Source: a virus
DNA length: 41,691 nucleotides
Reading direction: 5' to 3' (one strand)
IMG/VR virus record: IMGVR_UViG_3300047095_000520
Location: 1-41,691 of that record
Shown here piece by piece: positions 22,991-26,907 of the stretch (position 1 is its first letter; each line of letters begins with the position of its first letter). The translations under genes were made by a program, and so were the position numbers. Under the pieces are notes generated by a model. The model did no database searches. It had not been told where the DNA came from and saw only the letters and a list, made by a program, of their open reading frames with translations.

Positions 22991-22996
22991 GTGGTC

Positions 22997-23671
22997 ATGA
23001 AGATAACTCAGCCGAAAATCGTGGCGGTGTCTGCCAAAGAGAACACAGGGGATACCTTGTTATATGGGAGCACCGATGTAATTGACCGACCATTTAACTT
23101 AAGCATGGTATTGGGGAACTCCCGGGCGTTATGGGATGTTTATAACGTGGAGTGTCATATAGCCGAGTTCGACGAAACCGATTGTTTGATATTCGTTCAT
23201 GATGATGTGATACTAGAGGAAGACCCTTTCCCTAAGTTAGAGGTATTATTTGATACCTACGACTTGGTAGGGGTGGCGGGCGCATCTAAAATAGAAATGG
23301 CACCTCCTGCGCTATGGCATATCATGGGTGGCGGGTTCTATAGCAAGAATCTTCATGGTTGTGTTCAGCATATTCATGAAGGTAGGAAATTGCCTACTAA
23401 TTTTGGGTCATATCCACATAGAGTGGTTATGATTGATGGAGTTTTCATGGCGTTGAATAGAAAAGCCATCGAAACGATGGTTTTTGACACAGAGAACCCG
23501 TGTAATTTCCATTTCTATGACCTTGCGGCATCTATGGTCGCAATTGAGCGTGGATTGTCCATCGGAGTGGGTGATATATTGATAACACACGCGTCTCCGG
23601 GTCTTAAGGAGTATACCCCGGAATGGATAGCGGGAAACAACTGGTTTTTAAACAAATATGGAAACAAATAA
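22997..23671 (+). CDS. Glycosyltransferase family 2-like (GT-A)
   Basis: 224 residues from the ATG at 22997; a GTG at 22991 would place two extra codons before the predicted +1 and is less likely. LIFVHDDVIL (DxD-like metal site), LVGVAGASKIE, VVMIDGVFMALNRKAI and FHFYDLAASMVAIERGLSI match small GT2-like transferases that act on polysaccharides or proteins. Acceptor unknown; one of three glycosyltransferases in the window. First gene of the operon leading into gene 41. Confidence 0.78.
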   Translation: MKITQPKIVAVSAKENTGDTLLYGSTDVIDRPFNLSMVLGNSRALWDVYNVECHIAEFDETDCLIFVHDDVILEEDPFPKLEVLFDTYDLVGVAGASKIEMAPPALWHIMGGGFYSKNLHGCVQHIHEGRKLPTNFGSYPHRVVMIDGVFMALNRKAIETMVFDTENPCNFHFYDLAASMVAIERGLSIGVGDILITHASPGLKEYTPEWIAGNNWFLNKYGNK

Positions 23672-24164
23672 TATAACGAAAGTAGGGTGGGATAAGGAAG
23701 AAGTGGACGAGAACCAACAAAAGGTAGACGTACAGCGTATACGGATGGTTTCTACTCTAACACTGGAAGACCAACTGAAGTTTGCTCTTGTTGAAAGAAT
23801 ATTGGGGGAACTGGCGACCGCTGGAATTCCCGCCTATATATACGCGGGTCTTCCTAGGCCGGGAGTAGAGGATTCGTGGAGATGCATATACCAGTACAAC
23901 ACTTTACCTGCGCTAGTAAAATACGCGGAGGACGGTACGCTTGATGAAGAATGTGCTAATAAAGTGTCGGAGTTTAATGCCGCACTGTGGCACTCTCTAT
24001 TTACGACTATAACGGTCCAGTCTACCCGTGCAAGGCAGTTTGGACTGGATAAGCTACATTGGTCTGACCGAGACAGCTTTAAGCAAGTATTAGACTTTTT
24101 CGTAGGGTCGATTATAAACGCCTTACAGGTTCACAGTAAGAATGTATCAACCGATCCGTATTGA
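23658..24164 (+). CDS. Hypothetical protein before gene 41
   Basis: 168 residues starting METNNITKVGWDKEEVDENQ, overlapping the previous gene by 14 bp and ending TGATG with gene 41. The N-terminus is charged, then helical (LEDQLKFALVERILGELATAG) with a Trp/Tyr-containing middle (SWRCIYQYNTLP) and a helical end. No family recognised. Confidence 0.6.
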   Translation: METNNITKVGWDKEEVDENQQKVDVQRIRMVSTLTLEDQLKFALVERILGELATAGIPAYIYAGLPRPGVEDSWRCIYQYNTLPALVKYAEDGTLDEECANKVSEFNAALWHSLFTTITVQSTRARQFGLDKLHWSDRDSFKQVLDFFVGSIINALQVHSKNVSTDPY

Positions 24165-25474
24165 TGGTCCTAGATCTAGACGAATATGAAAAGATTATCG
24201 CCTATAAAGCGATAACGGATTCCGCGTATCTGAATGCTATTGCAGATTACGTGAAACCGGAGTATTTTGTCAATCAGAACATTGCTACATACTTCAAAAT
24301 CGTAAACGATTTTTACGATAAGCGTAAGATCCTACCAACATTTGCAGAAGTCAAGACGTATCTGGATACGGACGCCCTTCGAAACAACTTCAAGACGATG
24401 TTACAGTCGTTTAAGGAGATTGAAGGGGACTTCAATGTTGAAGAGTTGTATGAAAACACGGAGACTTTCCTCAAAGAGAGGGCGACATGGGTAACTCTGG
24501 TTGATATCTACGAGAACGCGGAGAAGAAAACCAAGAATCCCCAAGAGGTACTGGATGCGTTTGATGAGATATGTAAGATAAACCTCATTTGTGACGCCGG
24601 GATTGAGTTGTATAAGGATATCAACCTTATCATCGACAATATCCTCAACGTGGAATCTCATATCTCCACAAAATGGCCATGGCTTGATGAAGCATTGGAT
24701 GGTGGGTGGTCGGAGACCGGGAAAGCGTTGTATATGTTCGCAGGACAAGCGAACATTGGCAAGAGTATCTTCCTTGGGAACGTCGCGGCGAACATAGCGG
24801 AGCAGGGTAAGAGTGTGCTGGTCATTTCCTTGGAAATGTCGGAGATGGTCTATGCGAAACGCATAGCATCCAACATAACCAAGGTTCCCATGAAGGAGTT
24901 TCGGCTTAACACTCCTATATTGAAGCGTAAGATTCTAGAAGAACATGAAAGAAACCCGAAAGGGAAGATATTCATTAAAGAGTTTCCTCCGTCTCTCATA
25001 ACTCCCAAGCAAATCGAGTCGTTTATCAAGAAATTGATAGATTCGGGCGAACGAATTGATGCGGTAGTCATAGACTACGTTTCTCTGTTGACAACAACCT
25101 TTGGAAGCAACTCATATGAGCGGATAAAACACATATGCGAGCAGGTTCGGGCCATGTCGTACATCTTCAATTGTCCTTTTATTTCTGCTGTTCAACTAAC
25201 GAGGTGTCTAGACACTAATACACTAGTAGAGAGGGTAGATGGCCCAATCAGGATTGGGGATATTAGAGTCGGAGATAGTATAAAGGGAACAACTGGGTGG
25301 GTAGAAGTTAAACATGTCTACCCGTCTGAACGTAAAAAGGTATTTAGAGTGAAAACTAAATCAGGAAAGATTATTATATGTTCAGATAATCATGTTTTTC
25401 CAACGGTTAAAGGGAACATGTCGATTAGTAGTGGATTATCGGTTGGGTGTTCATTATTTTCAGCGGTTCAATAA
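24164..25474 (+). CDS. 41: gp41-like replicative helicase, N-terminal part fused to N-intein
   Basis: 436 residues. Residues 1-347 are the N-terminal domain and most of the RecA-like core of a DnaB-type helicase: GQANIGKS (194-201, Walker A), VVIDYVSLL (Walker B) and FISAVQLTR. The sequence then switches to C348-LDTNTLV, the first residue of a split intein, with block B-like IIICSDNHVFPT; the N-intein is 89 residues and ends at a TAA. The partner half is at 26503-26907. Protein splicing would join residue R347 to Ser42 of the second gene and give a helicase of about 440 residues. The start overlaps the upstream stop as TGATG. Confidence 0.92.
   Translation: MVLDLDEYEKIIAYKAITDSAYLNAIADYVKPEYFVNQNIATYFKIVNDFYDKRKILPTFAEVKTYLDTDALRNNFKTMLQSFKEIEGDFNVEELYENTETFLKERATWVTLVDIYENAEKKTKNPQEVLDAFDEICKINLICDAGIELYKDINLIIDNILNVESHISTKWPWLDEALDGGWSETGKALYMFAGQANIGKSIFLGNVAANIAEQGKSVLVISLEMSEMVYAKRIASNITKVPMKEFRLNTPILKRKILEEHERNPKGKIFIKEFPPSLITPKQIESFIKKLIDSGERIDAVVIDYVSLLTTTFGSNSYERIKHICEQVRAMSYIFNCPFISAVQLTRCLDTNTLVERVDGPIRIGDIRVGDSIKGTTGWVEVKHVYPSERKKVFRVKTKSGKIIICSDNHVFPTVKGNMSISSGLSVGCSLFSAVQ
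25205..25471 (+). other. N-terminal half of a split intein (gp41 family)
   Basis: Codes for 89 residues beginning Cys-Leu-Asp and ending SLFSAVQ. Length and motifs (C1, VGDSI, CSDNH-x-FPT) resemble the N halves of the gp41-1/gp41-8 split inteins known from marine metagenomes. Confidence 0.88.
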
Positions 25475-25492
25475 AAAGAATCTTGAGATGGA

Positions 25493-25504
25493 GTAAATAA
25501 AGGT
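25493..25504 (+). promoter_or_regulatory. Late-type element before the intein-associated endonuclease
   Basis: GTAAATA (25493-25499), AAGGT, then the ATG at 25505. It gives the endonuclease gene its own late-type promoter; AAGG could also act as a ribosome-binding site. Confidence 0.5.
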
Positions 25505-26530
25505 ATGCGATTTATTAAACGAGGTATAGCAGATAGAAAAGAATGGTTATCTATAACTAAAAAGATGCCTACGGAAGAGGTTTGTGTCTTATGGGATACG
25601 ACTAAGACAATGAAACCTTGTGATATAAAGTTTCTAGCTAATCTTGTGGAGTTTGATGTTCCAGACATTACACAACGATATAATTATTATAAAGCACTGC
25701 CTGCTAATATGGCAAAGGGAAATACCTTAGAACTTTATAAATTAAAATATGGGGATGTTATCGGACCACAAAGGTATGTACGCAAGTGTGACAGTAGTAT
25801 CAATACAAAAAAACGTTTTATTGAGCGTCATGGGGAGATAGACGGAAGGGTTAAGTATGATAATTATATTGATGGTATGAAAAACCCCAAAACCCGCATG
25901 GTAAACAAATACGGACAAACTGAGGGGGTTAAACGGTATGAAAAGTTCTGTACCCGGAACAAAGGCAACTTTTCATTAGAACGCCAAATCGAGATTCATG
26001 GGGAAAAAGAGGGCATGAAAAAGTTTAAAGCCATTAGACAGAGATTGTCATCTATTCATTCGCTTGAATCGTATAAGAAACGACATGGAGACATATTAGG
26101 AACAGACTTATACATGTCAAAAATGGCTAAGATGTGGAAGTCTTCTAAGTTAGGATACTCGTCGATATCACAAGTGTTATTTAAAAAAGTATCTGAACAG
26201 GTTCCAGATAGATTGTTATTATATAATGATAATAATGGGGAGTATATAGTTGGAAAATATAGTTTAGATTTTTATGATGTTAGTACAAAACGGGCAATAG
26301 AGTTTAACGGAGATCGGTTCCACGCTAATCCTAGCATTTATTCTCCAGAAGATACTCCAAACCCATTTAATACGGATTTGACATCTTTGATGATTTGGGA
26401 GTATGATAAAGCCAGATTACGATATCTCAACGATGCCGGTATTAGTGTTTTAGTAATTTGGGAAAAAGATTTCAGAAATGACGAACAACGTATAATAGAC
26501 CAATGTATAACTTTTTTAAAGATGAAATAA
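25505..26530 (+). CDS. Vsr-like homing endonuclease inside the fractured gene 41
   Basis: 341 residues. The C-terminal domain has YSLDFYDVSTKRAIEFNGDRFH, then LTSLMIWEYDKARLRYLNDAG and VLVIWEKDF, the layout of Vsr/EDxHD nucleases found with fractured genes. The N-terminal two thirds contain repeated units with RHGE-x-DG/KYGQ-x-EG patterns (for example KRFIERHGEIDGRVKYD, NKYGQTEGVKRYEKF, QIEIHGEKEGMKKFK), likely DNA-binding repeats. It is a free-standing endonuclease encoded between the two intein halves, which it presumably mobilises. It overlaps the start of the second helicase gene by 28 bp. Confidence 0.85.
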   Translation: MRFIKRGIADRKEWLSITKKMPTEEVCVLWDTTKTMKPCDIKFLANLVEFDVPDITQRYNYYKALPANMAKGNTLELYKLKYGDVIGPQRYVRKCDSSINTKKRFIERHGEIDGRVKYDNYIDGMKNPKTRMVNKYGQTEGVKRYEKFCTRNKGNFSLERQIEIHGEKEGMKKFKAIRQRLSSIHSLESYKKRHGDILGTDLYMSKMAKMWKSSKLGYSSISQVLFKKVSEQVPDRLLLYNDNNGEYIVGKYSLDFYDVSTKRAIEFNGDRFHANPSIYSPEDTPNPFNTDLTSLMIWEYDKARLRYLNDAGISVLVIWEKDFRNDEQRIIDQCITFLKMK

Positions 26531-26625
26531 TAGAAATTGAGGAGTTGGATGATTTTCACGACACTGTAGATATAGCAGTGTCTAAAGATAATTTATTTTT
26601 GGCCAATGGTATACTGACTCATAAC
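26503..26625 (+). other. C-terminal half of a split intein
   Basis: Codes for 41 residues ending THN before Ser. It pairs with the N half at 25205-25471; the two are separated by the endonuclease gene. Confidence 0.87.
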
Positions 26626-26907
26626 AGCTCATATCAAAAGGACAACCCGGGGATGGATGGTATAGCGGAGTCAATCGGCGTTGCCGCCACCGCAGACGTT
26701 ATCTTATCAATCTTCCAGTCTGAAGAGGATCAGGAGATGAGCTTGATCAAGCTGGGGATGATGAAAAACCGATACGGACCTAGAGGAATGGTACAAGCGA
26801 TGATGATCGACTATTTGACGTTGAGTATTTTACAAGCGAACGAAGGGGAGGAACTGATGGGTGAGGAAGACTTGAATATACTGGAAAGATTGGAAAGAGA
26901 GAATTGA
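26503..26907 (+). CDS. 41: gp41-like replicative helicase, C-intein plus C-terminal part
   Basis: 134 residues. Residues 1-41 are the C-intein, including DIAVSKDNLFLANGILTHN with the His-Asn terminus; N41 is encoded at 26623-26625 and the +1 extein residue is Ser42. Residues 42-134 (SSYQKDNPGMDGIAESIG, LIKLGMMKNRYGPRG) are the end of the helicase core with the Arg-finger region. It needs trans-splicing with 24164-25474. The downstream part ends in an acidic tail (EGEELMGEEDLN). Confidence 0.9.
   Translation: MYNFFKDEIIEIEELDDFHDTVDIAVSKDNLFLANGILTHNSSYQKDNPGMDGIAESIGVAATADVILSIFQSEEDQEMSLIKLGMMKNRYGPRGMVQAMMIDYLTLSILQANEGEELMGEEDLNILERLEREN
26874..26893 (+). repeat. Direct repeat R1, first copy
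   Basis: GAATATACTGGAAAGATTGG, a 20-bp perfect repeat of 27145-27164. This copy is the 3' end of the gene 41 C-half; similarity continues weakly to the ATG of the following gene. Confidence 0.85.

What the first reader, a model, noticed from the sequence alone, without database searches (positions are those of the whole stretch)
24164..26907. Replicative helicase gene 41 fractured by a split intein with a Vsr-like endonuclease gene inside
Seen: gp41 N-part ends ...QLTR followed by Cys-LDTNTLV and a stop; then a 341-residue endonuclease gene; then a gene starting with a C-intein ending THN-Ser and finishing the helicase. N-intein is 89 and C-intein 41 residues. Known: this arrangement was described by Dassa et al. 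(2009) from marine metagenomes (gp41-1, gp41-8). This is a new natural member in a contiguous genome. The extein junction R/S lies in a conserved helicase motif.
Basis: partly seen in the sequence, partly recalled or inferred. Interest (0 to 1): 0.75.

Follow-up and report, generated by a model that had tools for sequence, protein, structure and literature searches.

The report
Phage helicase gene split by intein
A virus of bacteria carries its essential DNA-unwinding helicase as two separate genes with a selfish DNA-cutting gene between them, and the two protein halves carry the two ends of a self-splicing element that should join them; this is a clear new member of a known type, and its relatives suggest that the break can be undone in evolution.

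Summary
gp41 is encoded as an N-half (24164-25471: 347 extein + 89 N-intein residues), a separate 341-aa endonuclease gene (25505-26530) and a C-half (26503-26907: 41 C-intein + 93 extein residues, junction R|S). Both intein halves match the solved gp41-1 intein and keep the splicing residues. The endonuclease model has a Vsr / I-Bth0305I-like catalytic domain. The insert is AT-rich against its exteins; the site is empty in close relatives; endonuclease and intein track the site, not the host gene.

The survey of relatives adds more than the window does. gp41 is fractured in dozens of viral contigs at two sites 15 residues apart, each with its own endonuclease clade. Some genes are broken twice (three pieces). 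Contiguous mini-inteins, 93-94% identical in DNA to fractured ones but lacking the endonuclease, lie inside fractured clades, so fracture looks reversible. One phage isolate record (Shigella phage ESh36, marked UNVERIFIED) has the arrangement and offers a laboratory test. Splicing and cleavage remain untested.

The parts
24164..25204 (+). gp41 replicative helicase, N-extein (347 aa, with Walker A GQANIGKS)
   Evidence: Pfam DnaB_C E=1.1e-21, PHROG 19 DnaB-like replicative helicase E=2.7e-52; uninterrupted relatives up to 73% identical
25205..25474 (+). N-intein (89 aa, Cys1, block B SDNH) plus stop codon
   Evidence: gp41-1 intein 6QAZ E=1.5e-17; 56% identical to L002 N-intein
25475..25504 (+). 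30-nt spacer between N-half stop and endonuclease start, with GGAG / AAAGG upstream of ATG
   Evidence: sequence
25505..26530 (+). free-standing 341-aa EDxHD/Vsr-like putative homing endonuclease gene
   Evidence: DUF559 E=2.8e-4; PHROG 22677 E=2.5e-32; AF2 model pLDDT 87.5; Vsr fold
25727..26149 (+). repeated helical units of the type HG/YG-x3-G-x2-[KR]-[YF] in the endonuclease, probably DNA-binding (inferred)
   Evidence: read directly (IERHGEIDGRVKY, VNKYGQTEGVKRY, IEIHGEKEGMKKF, KKRHGDILGTDLY); helical in the model
26153..26527 (+). Vsr-like catalytic domain, residues 217-341 (D255, E266, H273, D301, W319)
   Evidence: 1cw0 Z 11.8, 3hrl Z 11.4, 3r3p Z 11.2; D255/E266/H273/W319 invariant and D301 at least 90% in 44 relatives
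26503..26625 (+). C-intein (41 aa, VDIAV ... ILTHN); start overlaps endonuclease 3' end
   Evidence: 6QAZ E=7.3e-5; TIGR01443 intein_Cterm above its curated cut-off
26626..26907 (+). gp41 C-extein (93 aa from the +1 Ser, with KNRYGPRG), plus stop
   Evidence: 61-73% identical to the C-ends of close uninterrupted relatives

Best explanation
A T4-like phage replicative helicase (gp41) is fractured by a mobile module made of a canonically split, gp41-type class 1 intein and a free-standing EDxHD/Vsr-family homing endonuclease gene lying at the intein's split point. Inferred mechanism: the N- and C-precursors are translated separately, the intein halves associate, and trans-splicing (Cys1 acyl shift, transesterification to Ser+1, Asn cyclisation) joins R347 to Ser to give a 440-aa helicase. 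The C-half should be needed because it holds the conserved KNRYGPRG segment. The endonuclease probably cuts the empty helicase gene of co-infecting phages at or near this site, so that repair copies the whole module. Shown here: anatomy, homology, splicing residues, predicted endonuclease fold, empty and filled sites, site-tracking of intein and endonuclease. Inferred: splicing, cleavage, homing.
For: Anatomy and homology. Splicing residues C1, SxxH, D in VDIAV, THN, S+1; SxxH, block F Asp and THN are those reported for gp41-1 in PMC12245125, and this set is common among 86 homologous intein rows. Endonuclease fold Vsr / I-Bth0305I with conserved acidic/His residues. Foreign composition: GC3 0.28-0.31 in intein and endonuclease against 0.54/0.58 in the exteins; the insert is in the lowest 1.2% of same-size segments for GC. 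Empty sites in close relatives L005, L006, L007; L002 and empty L007 are 80% identical in DNA with alignments ending at the junction codon. Intein presence is sporadic on the helicase tree (site a needs 5 changes, all forced by well-supported branches), whereas endonuclease and intein trees each separate site a from site b with one change.
Against: No splicing or cleavage data. Intein divergence (56% to the nearest tree neighbour) leaves room for an inactive copy, though codon-position bias speaks against decay. No recognisable ribosome-binding site for the C-half. The record may be incomplete, so another gp41 elsewhere cannot be excluded. Pfam Intein_splicing matches each half only weakly (E 0.11 and 0.031).
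Confidence: 0.9

Rival explanations
1. Two gp41 pieces work as a two-subunit helicase without splicing; the intein remnants are dead and serve only as docking domains.
For: The halves are separate ORFs and splicing was not tested.
Against: All splicing residues are kept in both halves, including the terminal Asn and +1 Ser; the exteins abut exactly as in uninterrupted genes with nothing lost or added; dead inteins would be expected to lose Cys1 or Asn, and 85 of 86 rows keep Cys1.
Confidence: 0.05
2. The window holds a pseudogenised helicase, or an assembly chimera of an intact gp41 and an endonuclease locus.
For: Single contig; AT-rich insert.
Against: Same order at the same codon in an independent contig (L002) and in dozens of others; third-position bias in all five segments.
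Confidence: 0.03
3. The endonuclease is a chance lodger or a repair/modification nuclease rather than the homing enzyme of this intein.
For: Its relatives also occur away from gp41; cleavage was not tested.
Against: Endonucleases separate perfectly by intein insertion site and stay with the intein in phages whose helicases differ widely, as expected for a target-specific homing enzyme.
Confidence: 0.07

Closest known systems
gp41-1 split intein (PDB 6QAZ)
   Same: Helicase host, split position, SxxH, block F Asp, THN; both halves match by sequence
   Different: Clearly diverged in sequence (alignment); insertion site differs (gp41-1 native C-extein SSS, PMC7090010; TRSGY|SSS from memory)
gp41-8 split intein (half-life cited in PMC13014065; native junction QLNR|SAVE recalled from memory)
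   Same: Same R|S insertion site, from memory; loci L056 and L121 show SAVE after the junction
   Different: Sequence not compared directly here; window C-extein is SSYQ
Fractured genes (Dassa et al. 2009)
   Same: Conserved replication enzyme in two ORFs, split intein, free-standing EDxHD/Vsr-like endonuclease gene between them
   Different: New member, with a diverged endonuclease; the paper itself could not be read here
I-Bth0305I (homing endonuclease, 3r3p) and Vsr (1cw0, 1vsr)
   Same: Catalytic domain fold: Z 11.2 over 95 of 97 residues at 2.6 A; Z 11.8 over 131 residues at 3.1 A
   Different: Only 13-22% identity in the aligned part; a long helical repeat region precedes the catalytic domain

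Membership tests
Class 1 split intein, gp41 type | N-terminal Cys, block B [S/T]xxH, block F Asp, C-terminal HN, +1 Ser/Thr/Cys | tested here: met
   C1, S60DNH63, D23 of the C-intein, T39H40N41, Ser+1
Class 1 split intein, gp41 type | Homology of both halves to a solved gp41 intein | tested here: met
   6QAZ E=1.5e-17 (N) and 7.3e-5 (C)
Class 1 split intein, gp41 type | Trans-splicing activity | not testable with these tools
   needs protein expression
Fractured gene (Dassa et al. 2009) | Conserved enzyme in two ORFs split by an intein with a free-standing endonuclease gene between | tested here: met
   conserved in L002 and many further loci
EDxHD/Vsr-like homing endonuclease | Vsr-like catalytic fold | tested here: met
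   AF2 model against 1cw0, 3hrl, 3r3p, 1vsr at Z 11.2-11.8, covering most of each of these domains; next rows are mitoribosomal chains at 8.1-10.4, then 7.2 and lower. Foldseek E-values alone are weak, 0.045-0.62
EDxHD/Vsr-like homing endonuclease | Conserved acidic/His active-site residues | tested here: inconclusive
   D255, E266, H273 invariant and D301 at least 90% in 44 relatives, as expected; but they were not superposed on the Vsr or I-Bth0305I active site
EDxHD/Vsr-like homing endonuclease | Site-specific DNA cleavage and homing | not testable with these tools
   Indirect only: endonuclease clade follows insertion site
T4-like gp41 replicative helicase | DnaB-like ATPase in a T4-like replication module | tested here: met
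   DnaB_C, PHROG 19; neighbours UvsW-like helicase, gp47, gp46, gp43, UvsX, gp32, primase

The most novel reading that the evidence does not exclude
Fracture of phage replication genes is a reversible stage in the life cycle of a homing intein: the endonuclease gene keeps the intein split while it is present, and when it is lost the two halves can be re-fused into a contiguous mini-intein. The same genes can also be fractured twice, so that the helicase must be assembled from three polypeptides by two trans-splicing events.
Probability: 0.55. Interest if true: 0.65.

Novelty: new member of a known kind. Interest (0 to 1): 0.45.

Why it matters
Split gp41 inteins are among the fastest protein-ligation tools (gp41-1 and gp41-8 half-lives of 5 s and 15 s at 37 C, PMC13014065), so each natural member is a candidate tool. 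For biology, the set of relatives gives fractured / contiguous pairs at 93-94% DNA identity and sites filled or empty in close kin, which makes the question of how genes become broken, and whether breaks are undone, directly testable. An isolated Tequatrovirus record (ESh36) with the same architecture would let splicing and homing be measured in infected cells.

Tried and rejected
Dassa 2009 could not be read, so comparison with its loci rests on citing papers and memory. DNA-level search of phage records gave nothing useful. Single-sequence scan for the window endonuclease in viral contigs found no relative; the alignment-based scan did. A T4 late promoter (TATAAATA) upstream of the endonuclease: exact matches in only a few relatives, and in the window only a one-mismatch match inside the coding part; not claimed. 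Assembly chimera and pseudogene readings rejected. Second gp41 sought and not found in the record. The N- and C-intein were not folded together, since a joined sequence is not accepted by the fold tool. A literature search for natural genes broken by two split inteins listed only engineered or unrelated cases, which is weak evidence, as most papers are not held.

Full report
What is there. The window is a 41,691-base virus record carrying a T4-like replication module: a UvsW-like helicase, gp47, gp46, gp43, UvsX, gp41, gp32 and a primase. gp41 is in two pieces. The N-half (24164-25474) is 347 helicase residues plus 89 residues beginning CLDTNTLV. The C-half (26503-26907) is 41 residues ending ILTHN, then 93 helicase residues beginning with Ser. 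Between them lies a 341-codon ORF (25505-26530) whose 3' end overlaps the C-half start by 28 nt.

Identity of the parts. The helicase matches DnaB_C and the PHROG for DnaB-like replicative helicases. The N- and C-intein both hit the solved gp41-1 intein, and the C-half passes the curated cut-off of TIGR01443, while the N-half falls just short of that of TIGR01445. The splicing residues C1, SxxH, block F Asp, THN and Ser+1 are kept; SxxH, the Asp and THN are the features described for gp41-1 in PMC12245125. The endonuclease was modelled with 44 relatives (pLDDT 87.5, pTM 0.53). Its last 125 residues superpose on Vsr (Z 11.8), 3hrl (11.4) and I-Bth0305I (11.2). D255, E266, H273 and W319 are invariant and D301 nearly so. 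The first two thirds are mostly helical, with repeated units such as IERHGEIDGRVKY, probably DNA-binding (inference).

Is the insert a mobile module? Composition: exteins GC3 0.54 and 0.58, N-intein 0.28, endonuclease 0.31, C-intein 0.29. Close relatives have the site empty (L005, L006, L007, L010, L011, L040), one has it filled at the same codon (L002), and two have an intein 15 residues further on (L003, L004). On the helicase tree intein presence is scattered. Across 86 intein rows from gp41 loci, N-intein identity to the window (35-57%) usually exceeds helicase identity (20-30% for most), while the helicase relatives at 73% that use the other site have only 39% intein identity. The endonuclease tree separates the two insertion sites with one change in all 200 bootstrap trees examined, and the intein tree does so in 78%. 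In L124 against L072 the N-extein is 40% identical but the C-extein 84% and the C-intein 94%, as expected if a homing event carried flanking DNA with it; this is an inference.

Mechanism. Most likely the halves are trans-spliced to a 440-residue helicase; the C-half carries the conserved KNRYGPRG segment (the position of the arginine-finger motif in DnaB-type helicases, from general knowledge), so splicing should be needed for replication. The endonuclease most likely spreads the module by cutting empty gp41 sites. Neither activity was tested.

What the relatives add. (1) Contiguous mini-inteins at the same site exist in a group of closely related phages (L070, L073-L075, L086, L088-L091, L111). 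L073 and fractured L072 are 93-94% identical in DNA on both sides, and differ by about 1.3 kb present or absent at the split point. L070 is likewise 98% identical in N-extein and N-intein to fractured L082. In the surrounding clade the endonuclease is inherited along with the intein (47-95% identity, tracking intein identity), so the contiguous forms are most simply read as endonuclease loss with re-fusion. The form label changes at least 15 times on the intein tree; for the endonuclease-bearing split form nine changes are forced by well-supported branches. Direction is not proven, because the tree is unrooted. (2) L056, L064-L066 and L153 have gp41 in three ORFs with two inteins, one at Walker A with a short N-piece and one at R|S. 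In L064-L066 the second endonuclease is itself broken into two ORFs. (3) L106 has two inteins 15 residues apart. (4) Shigella phage ESh36, a Tequatrovirus record marked UNVERIFIED, has a fractured gp41 at the downstream site.

Verdict. The finding is correct and correctly interpreted; the arrangement is published, so the window is a new member of a known kind. The survey gives it more value than the window alone.

Noticed in passing
L072:5001-6675 and L073:3324-3710: Fractured (with endonuclease) and contiguous forms of the same gp41 intein at 93-94% DNA identity, differing by about 1.3 kb at the split point.
   Followed up: yes
L056:633-5875; L064-L066; L153:121-3912: gp41 broken twice: three ORFs, two split inteins, one at Walker A with a short N-piece and one at the R|S site.
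   Followed up: partly
L056:1219-3021: 600-aa ORF in the first gap of the doubly broken gp41 with a DUF7487 match and weak Vsr and GNAT acetyltransferase matches.
   Followed up: partly
L208 (ON528746.1 Shigella phage ESh36) 2882-5862: Phage isolate record with gp41 fractured at the downstream E|S site, with a 332-aa ORF between; annotated only as primase/helicase pieces and hypothetical protein.
   Followed up: partly
L106:3930-6300: Two inteins in one gp41 only 15 extein residues apart, the first contiguous (N|C junction), the second split.
   Followed up: no
L161, L166, L170, L178, L181-L188, L190, L198-L207: EDxHD-like endonuclease ORFs directly upstream of ORFs of about 660 aa (cut short at contig ends in some) that begin inside an intein and continue into a Walker A-like TTIINALS; L161 matches Rad50-type ATPase models, so probably short-N split inteins in gp46.
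   Followed up: partly
window:22223-22978 (-) and 22991-23671 (+): A DNA-adenine-methylase-like ORF (FAGAAG...DPPY, read by eye) and a glycosyltransferase-like gene (Pfam Glyco_tranf_2_5) sit between uvsX and gp41.
   Followed up: no
spacers after the N-half stop in site-a relatives, e.g. L103, L132, L145, L072: A recurring TTGTGT[CT]GC-like motif and, in L072/L082/L085, a CCCCCATCTAA...TTAGATGGGGG hairpin precede the endonuclease start; not seen in the window.
   Followed up: no
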